Assembly: GCA_024278215.1 (NCBI GenBank)
Contig: JAJRTR010000130.1
Coordinates: 1 to 20,436, forward strand
DNA length: 20,436 bases
Origin: a bacterium
Lineage (GTDB): Bacteria > UBP15 > UBA6099 > JAJRTR01
Reading direction: 5' to 3'
The translations under genes and the position numbers were made by a program. Below, piece after piece: positions 7,674 to 18,018 of this stretch. Each line of letters begins with the position of its first letter. Position 1 is the first letter of the stretch. Below the pieces are notes generated by a model. That model made no database searches. It had not been told where the DNA came from and saw only the letters and a list, made by a program, of their open reading frames with translations.

Positions 7674-9344
7674 ATGACAGGCACAAATGATTACGATGTG
7701 ATAGTAGTGGGTGGCGGCGTAGTGGGCACGGGCGTCGCGCGAGACTGCGCCATGCGCGGGTTCAGCGTGCTGCTTGTCGAGAAAAAGGACTTCGCAGGCG
7801 GCACATCGGGCGCGAACATGGGCATGATACACGGCGGCCTGCGCTACCTGCTCTTCGATGTCGAGACGACGAAACTTTCCTGCATCGACAGCGGCTACAT
7901 ACAGAATATCGCACCGCATCTGCTGTTTAGAATACCATTTATAACTCCCGTGATGAAGGGCGACAGCCACAATATCGAGCTGGTCGAAACATTCATGGAG
8001 GCTTATGATGTGTTCCAGCACTACAAGGGCGGCAAGCGGCACACGCGCCTGAGTGTCGAGGAAGCGAGGCATGTCGAGCCGGGCCTGTCGGAGGAGATCA
8101 CGGGCGCTGTTACTTTCGACGAATGGGGGATCAACCCGTTCAGGCTGTGCGTATGCAACGCGCTGTCGGCGAGTGAACACGGTGCGGAAGTGAGGAACCA
8201 CACGATTGTCACGGGATTTCTGCGCGACGCAGGCGCGGTGGTCGGCGTCAGTATGCGCGACACATTCAGCGGCGAAGAGTCGGAAGCGCAAGCGCGTATA
8301 GTCGTCAACGCGTGCGGTCCGTGGGCGCAAAAGGCGGCGGGTGCGGCGGGTGCCGAAGTTAAGTTGCGGCCCGGCAAGGGAATAAATGTTTTCTTTGACC
8401 GCCGCATCTCGAACTTCGCTGTCGCCGCCGAAGCTGTGGACGGCAGGCAGGTGGTCATCATGCCGCATGAAAACACTACTATGATGGGCTGCACCGACGA
8501 TGATTTCTACGGCGACCTCGATCACCTCGAAGCAACTCACGACGAGATAGAATATCTGCTCGAGGCGGTCGAAAGAGTTTTTCCTTCCATCAGAAAACAC
8601 AGGATGATCCGCGTCATGTCGGGTGTGCGTCCCACGCTGTTCGAGTGGCGCAAGATAGAGGACAAGCTGACGCGCGAGCATGAACTTTTCGATCATGAGG
8701 AGCGCGAGGGGATAAAAGGATTCATCACAATTGTCGGCGGCAAGCTCGCGACGTTCAGGATAATGGCCGAAGAAACGACGGACCTCATCTGCAAGAAACT
8801 CGGCTCCGGCGCCGAGTGCAGAACGCATCTGGAACCGTTGCCCGGCGGGGACGATACGGTCGATATCGAGAGTATCGCCGCCGAGTACGGTATGCCGCTT
8901 TATGTGGTGAAACGACTGGCGTTCAGGCACGGCACACGATGCCGGAATGTGCTCGACATCACAAAAGAGGACAGGCGCGCGGCGTCCATCGTGTGCAGAT
9001 GCGATCCCGTGACGGAAGCGGAAATACGCTATGTGATCAGGCACGAATGGGCGCGGACACTCGACGATGTGAGGCGCAGGACACACCTTGGCTGCGGGCC
9101 GTGCCAGGGCGCGCGCTGCAACTTCAGGGCGGCGGCGATTCTCGGAGATGAATTAAAGCTCGATCCGCCGGAAATATGGAGCGCCGGGGCGGCTTATCTC
9201 CAGCAGCGCTGGAAGGGTAAATATCCCATACTGCGGGGCGATCAGCTCGCCCAGGAAGAGATCAACCAGGCGATTTATTTCGCCGTCGGCAATTATGATG
9301 AGATATGCGATATGACAGACAGGGACAAATTCGCGAATGTCTGA
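7674..9344 (+). CDS. glpA: Anaerobic glycerol-3-phosphate dehydrogenase subunit A
   Basis: FAD-containing catalytic subunit that oxidises sn-glycerol-3-phosphate to dihydroxyacetone phosphate and feeds electrons through GlpB/GlpC to the quinone pool. The N-terminal Rossmann motif VVGGGVVGTG (residues 11-20) binds FAD, followed by the family's GGTSGANMGMIHGGLRYL segment and the VRPT motif. The C-terminal BFD-like [2Fe-2S] domain has Cys441-x-Cys443 and Cys474-x2-Cys477 (plus Cys482), as in GlpA and unlike aerobic GlpD. The length of 556 aa is close to the usual ~540. The frame is open from a TTG at 7623, but the ATG at 7674 fits the family start, just before the FAD motif. No Shine-Dalgarno sequence is visible. 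It overlaps glpB by 8 bp, indicating co-translation. Confidence 0.95.
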   Translation: MTGTNDYDVIVVGGGVVGTGVARDCAMRGFSVLLVEKKDFAGGTSGANMGMIHGGLRYLLFDVETTKLSCIDSGYIQNIAPHLLFRIPFITPVMKGDSHNIELVETFMEAYDVFQHYKGGKRHTRLSVEEARHVEPGLSEEITGAVTFDEWGINPFRLCVCNALSASEHGAEVRNHTIVTGFLRDAGAVVGVSMRDTFSGEESEAQARIVVNACGPWAQKAAGAAGAEVKLRPGKGINVFFDRRISNFAVAAEAVDGRQVVIMPHENTTMMGCTDDDFYGDLDHLEATHDEIEYLLEAVERVFPSIRKHRMIRVMSGVRPTLFEWRKIEDKLTREHELFDHEEREGIKGFITIVGGKLATFRIMAEETTDLICKKLGSGAECRTHLEPLPGGDDTVDIESIAAEYGMPLYVVKRLAFRHGTRCRNVLDITKEDRRAASIVCRCDPVTEAEIRYVIRHEWARTLDDVRRRTHLGCGPCQGARCNFRAAAILGDELKLDPPEIWSAGAAYLQQRWKGKYPILRGDQLAQEEINQAIYFAVGNYDEICDMTDRDKFANV

Positions 9345-10704
9345 TATGGAATATTCGACATTGGTAATTGGCGGCGGCATCGCCGGTTACACAGCCGCGC
9401 TGAGCGCGCGCGAAGCAGGCGGGGAAGTCGCGATTGTCGCGGGCAGGCCCGGCGCGTCTTCAATGTCGTCCGGCATCTTCCACACCGATGCCGACCCCGG
9501 CAGGGTCCGCGACATCGCCCTGCCGGAAAAGAACTCTTTCACGGAGAATATGAACCTTATTTCCATCGCCGAACCTTATCATCCATATTCGATCCTGGCG
9601 GGTGCACACTCGCCTCAGGAAATGCTTCGGGCGATAGATTGCTTTCTTAAATACCTTGCGGAAGCAGGTCTTGAAACAGGCGGCGCGGCAGATCGCTATA
9701 TGCTTCTGATGAACAATCTCGGTACGATGAACAGGGCGCGTTTCGCGCTGAAGAGTATCGCCGACGGCGATGTTGCCAGTCCGGGAAAGATGAAACTCGC
9801 AATTATCGGAATAAAAGGATTCGCGGATTACGATCCGGGTTTTATCGCGGCTTCCGGCGACGCGCTGGCCCGCAGAATTTCCGGAGAAGGCTTCGCGAAG
9901 ATCGACGCCTTCGAGGTTGCTGTAAAGGGATATGAAAACTCCGATAACATGACGACCACGCAGGTCGCGGAGGCACTGGACGAGCACGAAATTACAGGTG
10001 CGTTTGCCGAAACTGTGAAACGAAATATCGCGGGCGGCGAATACACGCATACCGCGTTCCCGGCGGTTCTCGGACTGAAACATCACAGGGAAGTTATCAG
10101 CGGCCTTGCGGAATATCTCGGAATCGCGGTATTCGAGATCGCCACTCTACAGCCCTCTGTACCGGGCATAAGAATAATGAATGCGCTGCGTTCGCTTGCG
10201 ACACGAAAAGGAATAACCGTAATTAAGGGAACCGCCGAAGCGGTCGACACTGGCGACGATGTGATTGCCGCGACGATAAGCGGCGGTTCGTCAGTGTACG
10301 GCACCCCGCAGAAAAGCAGAATTGCGGCGGGTAAAGTTATTGTCGCAACCGGCAGGTTTATCGGCGGCGGTATCGAACACGGCAATGCCGGAGATGACAT
10401 CAAAGGCGGCGGCGCGGGGCTCGTGGAAACACTCACCGGCATCATCCCGATATGTTATAAGGGGCACCCGGTGAAGGGCGGCACTATGATGAACTTTGTC
10501 ACACCTACAGTAGCGGAACCGCAACCTGTGTTCTCGTGCGGCGTCATGGTCGACGCGAAGCTGCGACCGCTGGACGCGAACGGAACGCCGGTGCATGAGA
10601 ACCTCAGATGCGCCGGCTCGATTATAGGCGGCTACGATCCCTGCCGCGGCAAATGCGGCACGGGTGCCGCCGCCGTCACTGGATACTTTGCGGGTATGGA
10701 ATAG
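9337..10704 (+). CDS. glpB: Anaerobic glycerol-3-phosphate dehydrogenase subunit B
   Basis: Flavoprotein subunit of the GlpABC complex, passing electrons between GlpA and the Fe-S subunit GlpC. An N-terminal dinucleotide-binding motif (VIGGGIAGYTAAL, residues 10-22) and the MSSGIFH segment typical of GlpB are present. The C-terminus carries GSIIGGYDPCRGKCGTGAA, matching the family's closing flavin-binding segment. At 455 aa it is slightly longer than the ~420 of enterobacterial GlpB. Its ATG lies inside the end of glpA. A second in-frame ATG at 9346 would remove three residues. It ends 3 bp before glpC. Confidence 0.93.
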   Translation: MSDMEYSTLVIGGGIAGYTAALSAREAGGEVAIVAGRPGASSMSSGIFHTDADPGRVRDIALPEKNSFTENMNLISIAEPYHPYSILAGAHSPQEMLRAIDCFLKYLAEAGLETGGAADRYMLLMNNLGTMNRARFALKSIADGDVASPGKMKLAIIGIKGFADYDPGFIAASGDALARRISGEGFAKIDAFEVAVKGYENSDNMTTTQVAEALDEHEITGAFAETVKRNIAGGEYTHTAFPAVLGLKHHREVISGLAEYLGIAVFEIATLQPSVPGIRIMNALRSLATRKGITVIKGTAEAVDTGDDVIAATISGGSSVYGTPQKSRIAAGKVIVATGRFIGGGIEHGNAGDDIKGGGAGLVETLTGIIPICYKGHPVKGGTMMNFVTPTVAEPQPVFSCGVMVDAKLRPLDANGTPVHENLRCAGSIIGGYDPCRGKCGTGAAAVTGYFAGME

Positions 10705-10707
10705 AAC

Positions 10708-11964
10708 ATGAGACTCGACAGCAAATCGCTGGAAGCGATAGGCAACCTGGCATACAGATTCTGGGCGCATGTATTCCGGCGCGCAGTGCGCAAGCCCGGC
10801 CAGGGTGAAGAACTCGCCGCTTTCAGAAAAAATTATCTCCCGGACAAACTCGAACCGCTGACCGGGTCCGAACGCGCGCTGCTGCTTGACAGCCAGAGGT
10901 GCGTCAACTGCGGAACATGCACGAGCGTGTGCCCGGTCGTGGACAGCGCGCGCGACGGTTTCTACCGTGGACCCGGCAGCATCACGGCGGCCCTGACTCG
11001 CTCCTTCCCCGACTTCGGCGCAGCCCGCGACGCTGTCTATAACTGCACCCAGTGCGCACGATGCGCCATCGAGTGTCCGCGCGGGATCGACATCCCAGGC
11101 CTGATACTTGCCGCGCGCCACAAGACTGTCCAGGTCGCCGACATCGGCATGATGAAGTCATACAATACCATTGTTGAAAAGCTTGCCGTTTCCGGTAACA
11201 TCTACGGAAAACCCTGCGACCGTTTCTCTTCATATATCAAGCCCCGTGCGGACGTCGTGTTCTTTGCAGGCTGCGTTGGGCGCAACGAAACTGTCTCCGA
11301 CACGATCCTGACAATCGGGCTGCTCGAAGCGTTGAAAGTAGATTTTACGATGATCGAAGAATACTGCTGCGGCGGTTTTCACAGGTCTATCGGCATCGAC
11401 CTGAAAACGAATGAAGGCGTGCGGAAAAACATCGATGCGATAATCGCGACAGGTGCAAAGAAAGTCGTAACAGGCTGTCCGCACGGGTTCGAAGTGATGA
11501 AAAGCTGCGAACCTTACGGTACGGAATTCAAGGAGAATAATATCACGGTTGAACACATAACCGAATTCCTGCGCGGTCTCGAGTTCGAGGCTGCGGCAGA
11601 GGACGGCTTGAGAGCCGCATATCACGACCCTTGCTTTCTCGGACGCAGGAACGGCGTCTATGACATACCGCGCGAGCTTATAAAAAAGGCAGGCGTGGAA
11701 ATCGTGGAATTGCCGGACACAAGAGAAGAATCGCTGTGCTGCGGATCGAAAATCGGTACGTTCGTGCTCGACAGCGGCGTGTCGGACGCTATTGCTGAAA
11801 AGAGAATGAAGCAGGTGCGCGAAAGCGGCGTTGGACTCCTCCTGACGGCCTGTCCCGGATGTCTTTCCGTATTCGAAAACACTGAGCACGATGGGATCGA
11901 GATCGAGAGTGTGGCCGGTTTTCTCGCGAAGCGGTGTTCCGATAAAAATAAAGTTGAGTGGTGA
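10708..11964 (+). CDS. glpC: Anaerobic glycerol-3-phosphate dehydrogenase Fe-S subunit C
   Basis: Membrane-associated electron-transfer subunit that connects GlpAB to the quinone pool. Two [4Fe-4S] motifs are visible: CVNCGTCTSVC (Cys65, 68, 71, 75) and CTQCARCAIEC (Cys113, 116, 119, 123). Two cysteine-rich CCG domains follow, the first with GCVGR (Cys189) and YCCGGF (Cys220-221), the second with HDPCFLGRR and LCCGSK. These are shared by GlpC, GlcF and HdrB/D. Length is 418 aa, against ~396 in E. coli. The order A-B-C with 8-bp overlap and 3-bp gap supports the assignment over the related GlcF. Confidence 0.92.
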   Translation: MRLDSKSLEAIGNLAYRFWAHVFRRAVRKPGQGEELAAFRKNYLPDKLEPLTGSERALLLDSQRCVNCGTCTSVCPVVDSARDGFYRGPGSITAALTRSFPDFGAARDAVYNCTQCARCAIECPRGIDIPGLILAARHKTVQVADIGMMKSYNTIVEKLAVSGNIYGKPCDRFSSYIKPRADVVFFAGCVGRNETVSDTILTIGLLEALKVDFTMIEEYCCGGFHRSIGIDLKTNEGVRKNIDAIIATGAKKVVTGCPHGFEVMKSCEPYGTEFKENNITVEHITEFLRGLEFEAAAEDGLRAAYHDPCFLGRRNGVYDIPRELIKKAGVEIVELPDTREESLCCGSKIGTFVLDSGVSDAIAEKRMKQVRESGVGLLLTACPGCLSVFENTEHDGIEIESVAGFLAKRCSDKNKVEW

Positions 11965-11966
11965 AT

Positions 11967-13520
11967 ATGAGAATAATAAAAGTATCAAGACTCGACAAAA
12001 CGATAATTGCGGAACTGGCGGCTATTGTCGGCGAAGCGAATGTCAGTGTGTCGGATGTCGACCGGATGGCATACTCGCGCGACCTCTGGCCGCAGACACA
12101 TATCTGGATGATGGACAATAAAGTGCCTTACCCGCCGGACGCCATAGCCTGGGTGGAAAACGAAGAACAGGTCGTCGAGGTTCTCATGCTGGCGAACAGA
12201 CTGCACTTCCCCGTTATCCCTTTCTCGGCGGGCTCGGGAGTTTGCGGCGGCACACTTCCACACACGGGTGGAGTTGTGCTGGACCTGAAGAAACTCAATA
12301 AAATTATAGCGATAAACGACAAGACACTTACCGTTACAGCCGAGACGGGCATCATCGGACAGCACCTCGAGATGGAACTGAACAGGAAGGGCTATACGAT
12401 GGGGCATTTCCCATCGTCGATTTACTGCTCGACGCTGGGCGGCTACATCGCGGCACGTAGTGCGGGGCAGTTGTCGGCGAAATATGGAAAGATCGAAGAT
12501 ATGGTGCTCAGTCTTCGCGCGGTGATGGCGCAGGGCGAAATCATCGAGACAGTCGTCACCCCGCGTTCCGCAGCGGGGCCCGACTGGGCACAGGTGCTGC
12601 TCGGCTCGGAGGGCACCCTCGGCATAATAACTAAAGCGGTAATGAAAATATATCCTTATCCCGCGTGCAGGTCGTACCGCGCTTTCATGTTCTCAGGTGT
12701 GCACGACGCGCTGGAATCCATAAGGCGGATAATGCGCGCGGGGATAGCGCCGGCGGCAATCAGGCTCTACGATGAACTCGACACGATACTGATCGGTTCG
12801 AAAAAAGAAGATTCGGTCGAAGCGCCCGTGAAATACGAACCGGATGACGAAAGTATGGTAAAGAAAATTATGCATGGCATGTTCGATTCCGTGCAGAATA
12901 TCATGCTGGGCAGACCGGGTATCGCAGGCAAGCTGGCGGAAAAAGTAAAAGGGAAATGCCTGCTTGTGCTGATGTTCGAGGGCGAGCGGGACATGACGGA
13001 AACGGAACTGCGCATGTCGACGAAAATATGCCTTGCCAACGATGCGTCCGACGAGGGAGAAGACCCCGCGCGTCGATGGTGGGACAACCGGTATAATGTT
13101 TCCTACAATCAGTCGCGCGTGTTCGACCGCGGTTCCTTTGTCGATACCATCGAAGTCGCCACAACATGGGATAAAGTCGAGGACCTCTATCACGACATAC
13201 GCCGCGCTGTGTCGAAAAAAGCGTTTATCATGGCGCATTTCTCTCACGCGTATCCGCACGGATGCTCGATCTATTTCTCGTTCATCGGACGCGGCAAAAC
13301 CGAGGAAGAGGCACTGCGCGTATATCGCGATATATGGGACACGGCAATGGACGAGTGCATCAGGATGGGCGCGACGGTCACGCACCACCACGGCGTCGGC
13401 CTCCACAAGGCGAAATACTTCATGCGCGAACTCGGCACGCTCGGTAAAATATTCAACGACCTTAAAAAGGTTGTCGACCCGAATAATATATTGAACCCCG
13501 GAAAGATGGGGCTGGAGTAG
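11967..13520 (+). CDS. FAD-binding oxidase resembling alkyl-dihydroxyacetonephosphate synthase
   Basis: A 517-aa VAO/PCMH flavoprotein. The FAD domain (about 55-230) has PFSAGSGVCGGT, a GIIGQHLE segment, GYTMGHFPSS, STLGGYIAARSAG and LLGSEGTLGIIT. These match alkyl-DHAP synthase (AGPS) more closely than glycolate or lactate oxidases. The cap domain has AIRLYD (Arg266), then SHAYPHGCSIYF with Tyr429, and THHHGVG with His473-475; these align by eye with the Arg, catalytic Tyr and His triad of human AGPS. AGPS swaps the acyl chain of acyl-DHAP for a fatty alcohol, making the first ether bond of ether lipids. The gene follows glpC by 2 bp. The ATG at 11967 is preferred over GTG codons at 11958 and 11961. 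Against the AGPS role, a Fe-S partner gene follows, as in hydroxy-acid dehydrogenases, whereas AGPS is redox-neutral. The family is certain, the substrate is not. Confidence 0.85.
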   Translation: MRIIKVSRLDKTIIAELAAIVGEANVSVSDVDRMAYSRDLWPQTHIWMMDNKVPYPPDAIAWVENEEQVVEVLMLANRLHFPVIPFSAGSGVCGGTLPHTGGVVLDLKKLNKIIAINDKTLTVTAETGIIGQHLEMELNRKGYTMGHFPSSIYCSTLGGYIAARSAGQLSAKYGKIEDMVLSLRAVMAQGEIIETVVTPRSAAGPDWAQVLLGSEGTLGIITKAVMKIYPYPACRSYRAFMFSGVHDALESIRRIMRAGIAPAAIRLYDELDTILIGSKKEDSVEAPVKYEPDDESMVKKIMHGMFDSVQNIMLGRPGIAGKLAEKVKGKCLLVLMFEGERDMTETELRMSTKICLANDASDEGEDPARRWWDNRYNVSYNQSRVFDRGSFVDTIEVATTWDKVEDLYHDIRRAVSKKAFIMAHFSHAYPHGCSIYFSFIGRGKTEEEALRVYRDIWDTAMDECIRMGATVTHHHGVGLHKAKYFMRELGTLGKIFNDLKKVVDPNNILNPGKMGLE

Positions 13521-13558
13521 TTGTACCGGGCACGCGCCGACAACAACACGTTCTGAAA

Positions 13559-13564
13559 AGAGGG
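13559..13564 (+). promoter_or_regulatory. Ribosome binding site for a TTG start
   Basis: AGAGGG lies 6 nt before the TTG at 13571. No ATG occurs in frame before the first Fe-S motif, so this site supports the TTG as the true start of the Fe-S protein. Confidence 0.6.
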
Positions 13565-13570
13565 ATCGCT

Positions 13571-14697
13571 TTGCTGACAAAATATAAGAAAGAAATCACA
13601 TACTGCACCTTCTGCCCCAAGTTGTGCCGTTTTGCCTGCACCGTCACCAACGCGGAAATGCGCGAGACGGTGACCCCCACGACCAAGATGAACTTGCTGC
13701 ATCTTGTGCGCGAGGGTGCCATCGACTTCACTGCCGACGTCGCTGAAATCGCATATCACTGCACGGGCTGCCGGCTTTGCAGGGCATATTGCAAACACAG
13801 AACGGATGTCGCCGAAACGATGATCGCCGCACGCGAGGAAGCCGTCAAATTCGGCGTTTGTCCCGATTCGGTGAAGGTATTTATCGCAAAATATCGCAAG
13901 TTCTCGAATCCGTACGGCGAAGACCTTTCCAGCACGCTTGCATCGCTCAAGCAGGAGCGCAGGATAAACAAGACTGCGCAGATGATCTATTTCCCGGGCG
14001 CGGTCACGTTGCAACACTATCCCGGTGTCGCCTCGGACATGATAAGTCTCCTGGAGATGTGTGGGACCGACTTCGCAGTGCTCGGCGGCGACAACCTCTG
14101 CTGTGGCACGCCCGCACTGCTCGCGGGCGATGTGAAAACATTCGCAAAAACGGCGAAATCGATAGCGGAAATCCTTAACTCCTATGAAACCGTGATTTGC
14201 GGCGATCCTCGGCCATCGAAATTATTAAAACCTACTACCCCCGTGCAGGCGCGAAAGTTACGGCGAAACTCGAGCACACCACCGAATGGCTCGCACGGCA
14301 GGCGGCGGAGAAACGCATCACATTCGGTCCTAAATCAGATCAGAGAATTATATATCACGACCCGTGCTACCTCTCTAAATACCTGAATGTTATCGAACCG
14401 CCGCGCTACCTTCTGCAACAGATGTTCTACCCGGACAACATACTCGAATTCAGCTGGAACCGCGACAAAAACTATTGTTGCGGCGGCGGCGGCCTCGTGC
14501 CGGTGACAGCGCCGGAAGTGGCTGCCGGGATCACACGTGAGCGGCTCAAAGAATTCTACGAATACGCGCCGGACGCGCTCGTGACAGCCTGCCCGACCTG
14601 CGAGCGGATGTTCGAGCGCGCCGACAACACAATTGCCGTTCTGGATATTGTTACACTTGTCAGGCAGCAACTTAATGAAAATATTATGGGTTCATAA
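13571..14697 (+). pseudogene. Second CCG-domain Fe-S oxidoreductase (GlcF/GlpC-like), split by a frameshift
   Basis: Two overlapping reading frames make one protein of about 375 aa. The first frame (13571-14386, TTG start) holds two [4Fe-4S] motifs, CTFCPKLCRFAC (Cys12, 15, 19, 23) and CTGCRLCRAYC (Cys64, 67, 70, 74). It continues into a first CCG domain with DNLCCGTP (Cys177-178), in which the usual GCxT cysteine is Ala (FPGAVT). After residue ~213 the frame must change between 14204 and 14212, consistent with one lost base. The other frame (open 14197-14697) continues with HDPCYLSKY, NYCCGGGG and TACPTCERM. The flanking sequence in each frame reads as normal protein, so the lesion is recent or a sequencing error. 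There is no slippery heptamer at the switch. It is probably the electron-transfer partner of the FAD enzyme 50 bp upstream. If the base is restored, this is an intact gene. Confidence 0.8.
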
Positions 14698-14723
14698 CCC
14701 GCATTGGTGAAATATGTGGGTTA
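14695..14723. terminator. Bidirectional hairpin holding both stop codons of convergent genes
   Basis: TAACCCGCAT at 14695-14704 pairs with ATGTGGGTTA at 14714-14723 around a 9-nt loop. In plus-strand RNA all ten pairs form, with one G-U; in minus-strand RNA one C-A mismatch remains. The outer TAA of each arm is the stop codon of the Fe-S gene (plus) and of kdsA (minus). No strong T-run follows on either side, so termination strength is uncertain. Confidence 0.6.
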
Positions 14724-15554
14724 AGTAATCATGGCGTTTTCTTTGATAAACGTATCTATCATTTTCGCGTTTTTGAGAATGTGCGAAAGATTTTTTATGG
14801 GGATCATGTTTGCGCCGTCGGAGAGTGCATTGTCGGGGTACTCGTGGGTTTCGAGGAAGACGGCGTCTACGCCCACGGCGAGGCTCGCCCGAAGGAGCGT
14901 GTCGACGAATTCGCGCTGGCCGCCGCTGGATGTGCCCGCGCCGCCGGGCAGTTGCACACTGTGCGTGGCGTCGAAGCATACCGGGTATCCGAACTGGCGG
15001 ATGATAGGCAGGGATTTGAAATCCACTACGAGATTGTTGTATCCGAAGGTGACTCCGCGTTCCGTGACCACTATTTTCCTGTTGCCTGTGCTTGTGACTT
15101 TGTCTATCACGTTGCGGATGTCCCACGGTGCGAGGAACTGCCCTTTTTTAATGTTCACGGTTTTACCCGTCTCGGCTATCGCCAGCACAAGGTCCGTCTG
15201 CCTGCATAGAAACGCCGGAATCTGCATGATGTCCAGCACGGATTCAGCATACTTCGCTTCCTCTGCCGTATGCACATCCGACAGGACAGGTGTGTCGAGT
15301 TCCTCTTTTATCTTCTTGAGGATTTTCAATCCTTTTTTTATGCCGGGACCGCGGTAAGAATTTATTGAAGACCTGTTTGCCTTGTCGTAGGAGGATTTAA
15401 AGACGAGAGGAATATCGAGTTCCGCCGTTATCGACCTGAGTTCCTCGGCCACTTTCATGCAGGCTTTTTCATCTTCGATAACGCATGGTCCGGCAAAGAG
15501 CACGAAAGGTGCGCCGCCGCCGATAGGGATTCCGTTTATGTCGAATGTTTTCAT
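14721..15554 (-). CDS. kdsA: 3-deoxy-8-phosphooctulonate synthase (metal-dependent class)
   Basis: Condenses phosphoenolpyruvate with arabinose-5-phosphate to Kdo-8-phosphate, the precursor of Kdo in the LPS inner core; cytoplasmic. The 277-aa protein is full length for the family. It shows FKSSYDKANRSS, SYRGPG, DATHSVQLPGG and FLETHEYPDNALSDGANM. Cys24 in AGPCVIE replaces the Asn of the E. coli enzyme. With His198, Glu235 and Asp246 it forms the metal site of the class II, Aquifex-type enzyme, so a divalent metal is expected. GGAG lies 8 nt before the ATG at 15554. It is last in the minus-strand LPS run, 86 bp after lpxK, and its stop codon lies in the palindrome shared with the convergent glp run. 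Confidence 0.96.
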   Translation of the reverse strand: MKTFDINGIPIGGGAPFVLFAGPCVIEDEKACMKVAEELRSITAELDIPLVFKSSYDKANRSSINSYRGPGIKKGLKILKKIKEELDTPVLSDVHTAEEAKYAESVLDIMQIPAFLCRQTDLVLAIAETGKTVNIKKGQFLAPWDIRNVIDKVTSTGNRKIVVTERGVTFGYNNLVVDFKSLPIIRQFGYPVCFDATHSVQLPGGAGTSSGGQREFVDTLLRASLAVGVDAVFLETHEYPDNALSDGANMIPIKNLSHILKNAKMIDTFIKENAMIT

Positions 15555-15640
15555 TCAGGCTCCGTCTCATAATGACATTTCTTTTGCAGAGTTGCAAGAT
15601 ATTATATCACGTAAAATTGTGTATGCCACCTGCAATTATT

Positions 15641-16741
15641 TCAATCACAAATATCCAGTATTTCCTCTACATGGCCGGCGCCGCTGAGAATCTCGATTTT
15701 TACTGTGATCACCCGCCACTCACAGGCGGGACTGAAGAAGCCGGGTATGCGCACAGCGTCTTTTTCTGTTGTCACGATAACGTCGGCCCTCGATTTTACC
15801 GCCCTGTCTTCCACATCACGGAGGTCTTTTTCTCCGAAAGGATGATGGTCTGTAAAGCGGAACAAAAGCGGTACGTTGCCCGTGAGTTCTCCCACAAGTT
15901 TTTCGAACGGTTCGGGGGATCCTATGCCGCTGACGCACAGGGCTTTCCGGCCTTTCAGGTCTTCTATCGGCAACATGATGCTTTCTTCGCCGAGTTTCGG
16001 CGCGCCCACGGGGGCGTATCTCGACTGGATTACGGGGATGTCCGGGAAGTCTTTCGCAAGGCGAGCCTGCAATGAATCGCGGATGTCGTCGGGCATGGCG
16101 TCCGCTTTGGCGATCCAGAAATGTGTTGCCCGGTGGAGACTCTCCAGCGGCTCACGCAACATGCCGGCCGGCAGGAGTTTTTCGAAACCTAGCGGCGACA
16201 GCGGATCGAAGACGACGATATTCACATCGCGGTGCAGCGTGACGAACTGGAAGCCGTCGTCGAGCAGAACGACATCGCAGCCATGTTCTTCGGTGAGTGT
16301 TTCGGCTGCTTTGCAGCGGTCGACATTGACGGCGACCACAGTGTTTTGCGTACCGCGAAGATAGAGCAGTGGTTCGTCTCCGCACTGGTGCCAGTCGATG
16401 TTTTTTCGTTGCGTGTCCAGCACTTCGATGCCACCGCCCTCGCGACCATAGCCGCGGGTGGCGATGCCGACTTTTCTGCCGCGTTCTTCGAGCAGTTCGG
16501 CCAGCCGTCTGCAAACAGGTGTTTTCCCGGTTCCGCCCAGTGTGATGTTACCGATACTGATGACCGGCACGTCGAGCGTGTCTTTCTGGCGCGCGTCGAG
16601 TTTTCTCATGCGCGCCTGAACGCCGCGCCTGTATATTCGTGACATGTTTTCCAGCGCGAAACGCGCGGCGACGGCGGCAGGGTCTCTGCGTTCGCCGGAT
16701 ATGATGTTATAAAGGGCTGAACCTTTTCTTCTATCGACCAT
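15641..16741 (-). CDS. lpxK: Tetraacyldisaccharide 4'-kinase
   Basis: Phosphorylates the 4' position of the lipid A disaccharide at the inner face of the cytoplasmic membrane, using ATP. The P-loop GNITLGGTGKTP spans residues 64-75, with GYGRE and CGDEP (120-123) next, then LLDDGFQ (159-165), LPAGMLREP and a late DHHPF motif with TTEKDAVR. All are LpxK signatures. Length is 366 aa, about 40 longer than E. coli LpxK, with a charged N-terminus and no clear transmembrane helix, so membrane contact may be peripheral. The ATG at 16741 follows the waaA stop by 5 bp, and no ribosome site is visible, so it probably depends on translation of waaA. Confidence 0.95.
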   Translation of the reverse strand: MVDRRKGSALYNIISGERRDPAAVAARFALENMSRIYRRGVQARMRKLDARQKDTLDVPVISIGNITLGGTGKTPVCRRLAELLEERGRKVGIATRGYGREGGGIEVLDTQRKNIDWHQCGDEPLLYLRGTQNTVVAVNVDRCKAAETLTEEHGCDVVLLDDGFQFVTLHRDVNIVVFDPLSPLGFEKLLPAGMLREPLESLHRATHFWIAKADAMPDDIRDSLQARLAKDFPDIPVIQSRYAPVGAPKLGEESIMLPIEDLKGRKALCVSGIGSPEPFEKLVGELTGNVPLLFRFTDHHPFGEKDLRDVEDRAVKSRADVIVTTEKDAVRIPGFFSPACEWRVITVKIEILSGAGHVEEILDICD

Positions 16742-16746
16742 GTCTG

Positions 16747-18018
16747 TCAGACAAGTTCCCTGTACAGTTTGTAAGCGAGTTCGCTTGCGCCGGCGTTGCT
16801 TTTTACAACCTCAAGTGCCGAGTCGTCCATCTTATTCCTTAAATCTTCACGGTCTAAATATTCTATCAGAGTCCGGGCCAGTTCGTCGCCGTCACGGACG
16901 CATCTGCCGCCGCCGCCGGCCTCGAGTGCGGCAACGCCCGCTTTAAAATTCGCCATGTTGGGGCCATAGAAAGCGGCTTTTCCGCACGCCGCAGGCTCGA
17001 GGATATTGTGTCCGCCCCGCTCGATGAGGCTGCCGCCGACAAAGCACGCCGCAGCTATCGAGTAAAGATACCGCAGTTCTCCTATCGTGTCCCAGACGAC
17101 AATATCGCCGGTGCACGGATTCCGCGGGCTGCATTCAGAGCGCAGATCGACTTTTCGACCGTCGGCGCGGCACAGCTCGAGCACATCCGGCGATCTCTCG
17201 ATGTGGCGCGGCGCGATCACCATTCTTAACGCGGGAAATTTCTCTTTCAGTTTCCGCAGCACATCGAGCATAATCTCTTCCTCGCCCGGATGTGTGCTGC
17301 CCGCGACAACAAAGGGCGCACCGTCTGCACATACTGTCCTGCGAAGTTCGTCGATCTTATCGTTTTCGAGTTCCGTCATCATGCCGTCGAATTTCATGTT
17401 GCCCACAATATGTACCTTCGACGGTTCGGCGCCCAGTTTTTTCATGCGTTCGGCGTCCGTTGCGGATTGCACGCCGATGGTGTTCATAAGTGAAAACACA
17501 TAGCGATACAGTCCGCTGATCGTGTTGCCCGTGGAAGCCATGCGATCCGACACGCGACCATTCAGAAGCAGCACGGGCGCACCGCTTTTTCGGCACTGCG
17601 CAACGATGTTCGGCCAGATTTCCGTTTCCATAAGTATAAGAACGCGCGGCCTGAAAGCGCGGACGGCGCGTGCGATAACCCATGGAAAATCGAAAGGGAA
17701 GTAAGCGGAAATGATTTTATCGCCGAAAGTATTTTGCAGTACTTCCATGCCGCCTTTTGTCGTTGTGGTGACGACGACAGGCGTGCCGGGCTCGCGCTCG
17801 AGCAGCAAGCGGATAAGTGGTGTCGCGCCGACTGCTTCGCCGACAGAAACAGCATGAACCCATGTTGCTCCGCCCGCCGGTTTCCTCTTGTAAAAAGCAA
17901 ATCTTTCCCTCATCGTGCCTGTGTATTTGCGGTTGTTTATCGCGGCGACGGCGAAAAACACAAGCAGCAGTGGATATGCCGCTATCAGTATGACGTTGTA
18001 AATCAGGTGATAAATCAA
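16747..18018 (-). CDS. waaA: 3-deoxy-D-manno-octulosonic acid (Kdo) transferase
   Basis: GT-B glycosyltransferase that moves Kdo from CMP-Kdo to the lipid A precursor. The N-terminus has a hydrophobic anchor at about residues 5-27. HAVSVGE follows, with Glu61 as the likely catalytic base, then ETEIWPN, NGRVSDR, GNMKFD, AGSTHPGEEE, APRHIER and a C-terminal GGSLIERGGHNILEPAACGKAAFYGPNM-type nucleotide-sugar site (about 315-342), all diagnostic. The length of 423 aa matches E. coli WaaA. The start is a TTG at 18018; an in-frame stop at 18037-18039 leaves no upstream ATG, and the next ATG would cut off the anchor. Whether it adds one, two or more Kdo residues cannot be read from sequence. Confidence 0.96.
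   Translation of the reverse strand: MIYHLIYNVILIAAYPLLLVFFAVAAINNRKYTGTMRERFAFYKRKPAGGATWVHAVSVGEAVGATPLIRLLLEREPGTPVVVTTTTKGGMEVLQNTFGDKIISAYFPFDFPWVIARAVRAFRPRVLILMETEIWPNIVAQCRKSGAPVLLLNGRVSDRMASTGNTISGLYRYVFSLMNTIGVQSATDAERMKKLGAEPSKVHIVGNMKFDGMMTELENDKIDELRRTVCADGAPFVVAGSTHPGEEEIMLDVLRKLKEKFPALRMVIAPRHIERSPDVLELCRADGRKVDLRSECSPRNPCTGDIVVWDTIGELRYLYSIAAACFVGGSLIERGGHNILEPAACGKAAFYGPNMANFKAGVAALEAGGGGRCVRDGDELARTLIEYLDREDLRNKMDDSALEVVKSNAGASELAYKLYRELV

What the first reader, a model, noticed from the sequence alone, without database searches (positions are those of the whole stretch)
7674..14697. GlpABC joined to an alkyl-DHAP-synthase-like enzyme and a second CCG Fe-S protein
Five plus-strand genes with gaps of 2-50 bp or overlaps combine a G3P:quinone dehydrogenase, which makes DHAP, with an enzyme resembling the ether-bond-forming alkyl-DHAP synthase and an extra GlcF/GlpC-type Fe-S subunit. 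The cluster could be a route from G3P to bacterial ether lipids, or a second flavin dehydrogenase feeding the same electron path. No DHAP acyltransferase or fatty acyl reductase gene is in the window, which leaves the ether-lipid reading incomplete.
Basis: partly seen in the sequence, partly recalled or inferred. Interest (0 to 1): 0.75.

Follow-up and report, generated by a model that had tools for sequence, protein, structure and literature searches.

The report
AGPS-like dehydrogenase cassette beside GlpABC
Next to genes for oxidising glycerol phosphate sits an enzyme that looks like the ether-lipid-forming enzyme AGPS but lacks one of its catalytic residues and usually travels with an iron-sulfur partner; it is probably an uncharacterised electron-donating dehydrogenase, shared by bacteria and Asgard archaea, that is easily mistaken for an ether-lipid synthase.

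Summary
The cluster is real. Plus-strand genes GlpA, GlpB, GlpC-like, an AGPS-like flavoprotein and a CCG Fe-S gene lie at 7674-14697. The fifth gene is frameshifted near 14,211; intact copies exist in two genomes of the same order. The same order GlpA-GlpB-GlpC-AGPSlike-CCG occurs in two Jordarchaeum (Asgard) genomes. More widely, the AGPS-like gene is followed by a CCG gene in 49 of 80 related loci, often with a GlcE-like gene and a kinase (YegS lipid kinase or FGGY). The flavoprotein keeps AGPS residues R419, Y578 and HHH, but the third catalytic arginine (R515 in guinea pig, R447 in Dictyostelium) is Gln385. It falls outside a supported clade of Arg-bearing AGPS, and far from the 2-hydroxyacid dehydrogenases (GEHG motif). 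The host shows no strong fatty-acyl reductase and no PlsA/Ger. Synthesis of ether lipids is therefore unlikely; a flavin dehydrogenase passing electrons to Fe-S/quinone, with a glycerol-phosphate-type substrate, fits best. An oxidative role on alkyl- or acyl-glycerol phosphates is open and would be new. The whole order also lacks GpsA, which leaves open a reverse, G3P-making role. Substrate and electron transfer are inferred, not shown.

The parts
7674..9344 (+). GlpA-type sn-glycerol-3-phosphate dehydrogenase, catalytic FAD subunit (DAO + DAO_C + BFD [2Fe-2S])
   Evidence: the GGLRYL, SGVRP, TRE and GGKL motifs of E. coli GlpD (2qcu) are conserved by alignment; only GlpA/GlpD-type gene found in G000
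9337..10704 (+). GlpB-type FAD subunit
   Evidence: (TIGR03378 149 bits, cut-off 174)
10708..11964 (+). GlpC-like dicluster ferredoxin/CCG Fe-S subunit, divergent
   Evidence: (TIGR03379 56 bits, cut-off 280; LdhH 131 bits)
11958..13520 (+). AGPS-like FAD enzyme (FAD_binding_4 + FAD-oxidase_C); start GTG 11958 or ATG 11967
12762..12764 (+). codon of Arg269 (= AGPS Arg419 guinea pig / Arg352 Dictyostelium), kept
13110..13112 (+). codon of Gln385, at the place of the AGPS catalytic Arg515 / Arg447
13272..13274 (+). codon of Tyr439 (= AGPS Tyr578 / Tyr508), kept
13383..13391 (+). codons of His476-His478 (AGPS HHH motif; GEH in 2-hydroxyacid dehydrogenases)
13571..14697 (+). GlcF/GlpC-type CCG Fe-S protein gene, frameshifted near 14,211 (ORFs 13571-14386 and 14197-14697)
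   Evidence: intact homologues in L033 and L034

Best explanation
The cassette is a respiratory-type, catabolic unit. GlpABC oxidises sn-glycerol-3-phosphate (or a phosphorylated glycerol derivative) at C2. The AGPS-like flavoprotein is the catalytic subunit of a second, GlcD(E)F-like dehydrogenase whose flavin hands electrons to the CCG Fe-S protein and on to quinone; it is not an ether-lipid synthase. Its substrate is most likely also a phosphorylated glycerol/DHAP-type molecule, because the AGPS substrate-site residues Arg269, Tyr439 and HHH are kept and because a lipid or FGGY kinase, and often a G3P dehydrogenase, sit beside it in many lineages. Shown by sequence: homology, active-site make-up, clade, gene order and its recurrence. 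Inferred: electron transfer from the flavoprotein to the CCG protein, the substrate, and the direction of reaction.
For: Arg515/Arg447 replaced by Gln385 while the other AGPS residues are kept; Arg-bearing AGPS form a separate clade (SH-aLRT 99) that excludes the window; CCG gene immediately downstream on the same strand in 49 of 80 loci, with 8 more ending too soon to tell; a GlcE-like FAD gene between the two in at least 12 Myxococcota-type loci, giving the GlcD-GlcE-GlcF layout; identical GlpA-B-C-AGPSlike-CCG order with an FGGY kinase in Jordarchaeum L092 and L099, partial versions in L039, L054, L060 and L119; AGPSlike-CCG-YegS kinase in two genomes of the same order and widely elsewhere; GlpA keeps the G3P-site motifs; no strong fatty-acyl reductase and no DUF2229 PlsA/Ger in the genome.
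Against: No biochemistry exists for this clade. The fold and most catalytic residues are those of AGPS, so a synthase with altered residues is not excluded. Some relatives (Sorangium-type Polyangiaceae loci) show no CCG gene nearby, so the partner is not universal. In the window itself the CCG gene is frameshifted and its first CCG domain has lost Cys ligands, so this copy may be decaying or mis-sequenced. Sharing an operon with GlpABC does not prove a shared substrate class.
Confidence: 0.6

Rival explanations
1. True AGPS: the flavoprotein makes alkyl-DHAP for bacterial ether lipids, with DHAP supplied by GlpABC.
For: Best PDB matches by sequence and fold are AGPS; R419, Y578 and HHH kept; a 60-aa helical insert at the place of the AGPS gating region; lipid-kinase neighbours in relatives; seven PF01553 acyltransferases in the genome.
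Against: Catalytic Arg515/Arg447 is Gln; outside the Arg-bearing AGPS clade; no strong fatty-acyl reductase; no FAR/GNPAT beside it as in the M. xanthus MXAN_1676 operon (PMC9131029); the Fe-S partner has no role in a redox-neutral reaction.
Confidence: 0.1
2. An independent dehydrogenase for a different small substrate (a 2-hydroxyacid, or sn-glycerol-1-phosphate), placed beside GlpABC only for common regulation or a common electron path.
For: GlcDEF-like layout; GlcD is the best NCBIfam model, 211 bits; Asgard, Thermoplasmatota and Bacillota members lack the 50-90-aa insert and have small-substrate FGGY kinases in several cases.
Against: The GEHG signature of 2-hydroxyacid dehydrogenases is absent and the branch between the two groups is long; lipid kinases are the commonest kinase neighbour.
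Confidence: 0.3
3. Reductive, biosynthetic direction: in an order that lacks GpsA, GlpABC (and perhaps the AGPS-like/CCG pair, as an acyl-DHAP reductase) supplies sn-G3P or lysophosphatidate for membrane lipids.
For: No GpsA-type match above cross-hit level in any of 7 genomes of the order, against strong matches in all 14 other genomes searched; window GlpA is the only GlpA/GlpD-type gene in G000.
Against: G000 has a full glycerol kinase (717 bits), which can supply G3P from glycerol; other members of the order have GlpD, or no GlpA/GlpD match, instead of GlpABC; reducing DHAP with menaquinol is uphill (general knowledge).
Confidence: 0.1

Closest known systems
Alkyl-DHAP synthase, AGPS (EC 2.5.1.26; PDB 4bby, 2uuu)
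   Same: Fold, FAD domain, Arg419, Tyr578 and HHH motif, and a helical insert at the gating region
   Different: Arg515/Arg447 is Gln; separate clade; linked CCG Fe-S partner; no strong FAR in the genome
Glycolate oxidase GlcDEF and D-lactate dehydrogenases with a CCG partner
   Same: Layout of a FAD-oxidase subunit, in many relatives a GlcE-like subunit, and a GlcF-like CCG subunit
   Different: Catalytic motif HHHG instead of GEHG, Arg/Tyr instead of Glu/His; separated by a long branch
E. coli anaerobic G3P dehydrogenase GlpABC
   Same: Gene order and domain content of A and B; G3P-site motifs kept
   Different: 33%, 27% and 23% identity; below equivalog cut-offs; GlpC-like subunit highly divergent; extra AGPS-like and CCG genes
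E. coli YgcU (uncharacterised)
   Same: HHH-type AGPS-like FAD protein, with a putative sugar kinase (ygcE), Fe-S (ygcO) and flavoprotein (ygcQR) genes near it
   Different: Distant (long branch), no GlpABC or CCG gene

Membership tests
AGPS (alkyl-DHAP synthase) | Arg419/Arg352 and Tyr578/Tyr508 | tested here: met
   Arg269 and Tyr439
AGPS (alkyl-DHAP synthase) | Arg515/Arg447, important for catalysis by mutagenesis (PMC3509576) | tested here: not met
   Gln385; Gln, Met, Leu, Ala, Ser, Thr and others across the clade
AGPS (alkyl-DHAP synthase) | HHH motif | tested here: met
   His476-478
AGPS (alkyl-DHAP synthase) | Groups with eukaryotic AGPS | tested here: not met
   Arg-bearing clade of 8 rows, SH-aLRT 99, excludes the window
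AGPS (alkyl-DHAP synthase) | Fatty-acyl reductase and DHAP acyltransferase supply | tested here: inconclusive
   PF07993 best 61 bits, probably SDR cross-hits; seven PF01553 acyltransferases of unknown specificity
AGPS (alkyl-DHAP synthase) | Alkyl-DHAP synthase activity, alkyl ethers in the host | not testable with these tools
   needs biochemistry or lipid analysis
GlcD-type 2-hydroxyacid dehydrogenase | GEHG motif and Glu/His active-site columns | tested here: not met
   HHHG, Arg, Tyr
GlcD-type 2-hydroxyacid dehydrogenase | Clade membership | tested here: not met
   GEHG group separate, SH-aLRT 100
GlcD-type 2-hydroxyacid dehydrogenase | CCG (GlcF-like) partner encoded next to it | tested here: met
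   (frameshifted in the window)
GlpABC | Equivalog scores of GlpA, GlpB, GlpC | tested here: not met
   442/553, 149/174, 56/280 bits
GlpABC | G3P-binding motifs in the catalytic subunit | tested here: met
   alignment to 2qcu; residue roles from general knowledge
GlpABC | A-B-C operon order with DAO, FAD_binding_2 and dicluster Fe-S subunits | tested here: met

The most novel reading that the evidence does not exclude
The cassette is an oxygen-independent pathway for breaking down glycerol ether lipids: a kinase (YegS or FGGY) phosphorylates an alkylglycerol, GlpABC/GlpD oxidises its C2 to an alkyl-DHAP, and the AGPS-like/CCG enzyme works in the AGPS direction reversed or oxidatively at C1 to release the alkyl chain and a triose phosphate. 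It would be shared by sediment bacteria, Thermoplasmatota and Asgard archaea.
Probability: 0.15. Interest if true: 0.85.

Novelty: new variant of a known kind. Interest (0 to 1): 0.58.

Why it matters
Published surveys count homologues of M. xanthus Agps (at least 30% identity, E below 1e-30) as potential for ether-lipid synthesis and even report archaeal hits (PMC11868695). This clade can reach that level (34% identity to Dictyostelium AGPS for L054) yet lacks a catalytic residue and comes with an electron-transfer partner, so such inferences may be wrong for many lineages. If the enzyme acts on ether glycerolipids, it would offer a candidate for anaerobic ether cleavage; the only enzyme described as cleaving alkylglycerol ethers, AGMO, is a monooxygenase (PMC7911779, PMC3617469). 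The recurrence in Asgard archaea also touches the question of what their GlpABC and glycerol-kinase-like genes do (PMC6737245).

Tried and rejected
Rejected: membership of the flavoprotein in GlcD/D-lactate dehydrogenases (motif and tree). Rejected: a clean five-gene reading of the window (frameshift). Considered and not supported: a programmed frameshift, since no slippery heptamer was seen by eye at 14,190-14,240 and relatives are unshifted. Considered: insert length as a marker of lipid substrate; it does not track the lipid kinase, because Bacillota/Desulfovibrio members with YegS lack the insert. The AF2 model (8 sequences, mean pLDDT 75) has low confidence at the active-site loops 152-172 and 384-388, so no geometry was argued from it.
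Full report
Observation. The window holds GlpA (7674-9344), GlpB (9337-10704), a GlpC-like protein (10708-11964), an AGPS-like FAD protein (11958 or 11967-13520) and a CCG Fe-S gene (13571-14697), all on the plus strand with gaps of -8, +3, -7 and +50 bp. The fifth is two overlapping ORFs in different frames. Aligned piecewise to the intact 375-aa protein of G005 (L034), they match its adjoining halves at 49% and 48% identity, so one base is missing near 14,211; the first CCG domain has also lost Cys ligands (CPSC to DPxA, and an earlier C to A). The Glp subunits score below NCBI equivalog cut-offs, but GlpA keeps the G3P-site motifs of E. coli GlpD.

What the flavoprotein is. By sequence its best PDB match is Dictyostelium AGPS (224 bits) and then guinea pig AGPS, ahead of D-lactate dehydrogenase (133 bits); a Foldseek search of an AF2 model also ranks AGPS first. 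In AGPS, R352, Y508 and R447 (Dictyostelium numbers) are important for catalysis (PMC3509576, Fig. 5 legend). At these columns the window has Arg269, Tyr439 and Gln385; the HHH motif is kept. 2-Hydroxyacid dehydrogenases have Glu, His and GEH there. Across the window's clade the third position is Gln, Met, Leu, Ala, Ser, Thr and others, and Arg only in the true AGPS group. In a tree of 84 proteins the Arg-bearing AGPS (eukaryotic plus some bacterial) form one supported group (99) that excludes the window; the GEHG dehydrogenases are separated (100) by a branch of 1.4 changes per column; window, L034 and L053 group with support 100. The tree is a quick one with long branches, so finer placements are unsure.

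Surroundings elsewhere. A scan of 84,980 species genomes with an alignment of close relatives gave 80 loci. A CCG gene follows on the same strand in 49; 8 more end too soon to tell; a GlcE-like FAD gene lies in the cluster in 12, a YegS-type lipid kinase in 21, an FGGY kinase in 8 and GlpA or GlpB in 12. The order GlpA-GlpB-GlpC-AGPSlike-CCG of the window is found in two Jordarchaeum genomes, with an FGGY kinase in front; partial versions are in another Jordarchaeia genome (L060), a Helarchaeota genome (L119), a deltaproteobacterial/myxococcotal genome (L054) and G050 (L039). Lokiarchaeota have AGPSlike-CCG-FGGY; Thermoplasmatota have AGPSlike-CCG-GlpA-oxidoreductase-119 aa-GlpK; Bacillota and Desulfovibrio have AGPSlike-CCG-YegS. 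In the window's own order G002 and G005 have AGPSlike-CCG-YegS. Window GlpA is 45% identical to Jordarchaeum GlpA but 33% to E. coli GlpA, and up to 56% to L054 GlpA.

Host genome. G000 (95% complete) has this AGPS-like gene and one GlcD-type gene, one strong YegS kinase shared by its order but not the second, AGPS-linked one of G002 and G005, no other GlpA/GlpD, no strong fatty-acyl reductase, no DUF2229 PlsA/Ger, seven PF01553 acyltransferases and a full GlpK (717 bits). None of seven genomes of the order has a GpsA-type match above cross-hit level, whereas all 14 other genomes searched do.

Mechanism. AGPS is redox-neutral and uses oxidised FAD (PMC3509576), so a dedicated Fe-S partner points to electron transfer instead. 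The repeated GlcD-GlcE-GlcF-like layout supports a flavin dehydrogenase passing electrons through the CCG protein to quinone; GlpABC does the same for G3P. The kept AGPS substrate residues and the kinase and G3P-dehydrogenase neighbours suggest a phosphorylated glycerol/DHAP-type substrate. Electron transfer, substrate and direction are inferences. A real AGPS (probability about 0.1), an unrelated small-substrate dehydrogenase (0.3) and a reductive lipid-backbone role in an order without GpsA (0.1) remain open.

Literature. In 7 searches of the held library no paper was found that describes this cassette; subscription papers are mostly missing. M. xanthus MXAN_1676, about 42% identical to human AGPS, lies in an operon with a FAR/GNPAT-like gene (PMC9131029), unlike the cassette here.

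Noticed in passing
G000-G006 (whole order of the window): No GpsA (NAD-dependent G3P dehydrogenase) match above cross-hit level in any of seven genomes, while all 14 other genomes searched have a strong one; how the order makes its G3P is unclear.
   Followed up: partly
L156 (G001 C9) and L157 (G004 C35): In the same order, an operon with GlpD, an Arg-bearing AGPS-like enzyme, an XylB-like FGGY kinase and, in L156 where it was typed, a glycyl radical enzyme nearest to the glycerol dehydratase/sulfopropanediol dehydratase families.
   Followed up: partly
window 14,200-14,215: One-base frameshift in the CCG gene and loss of Cys ligands in its first CCG domain; real decay or assembly error not distinguished.
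   Followed up: partly
L035 7572-10561 (G041): Two tandem AGPS-like genes followed by CCG and YegS.
   Followed up: no
L102, L106, L108, L114, L115, L116, L118, L129 (Lokiarchaeota): A conserved gene of about 492 aa (317 aa as called in L129) lies just upstream of AGPSlike-CCG; the L106 copy has no Pfam or NCBIfam match.
   Followed up: partly
L194, L195 (Archangium): AGPS-like proteins next to GlpD with HQH in place of HHH.
   Followed up: no
L133 9965-11419 (E. coli ygcU): E. coli YgcU belongs to the HHH AGPS-like group and lies in an uncharacterised cluster with flavoprotein, Fe-S and sugar-kinase genes.
   Followed up: partly
window 14721-18018, minus strand: KdsA, LpxK and KdtA-like genes (named by eye from the translations) point to an LPS-bearing host.
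   Followed up: no
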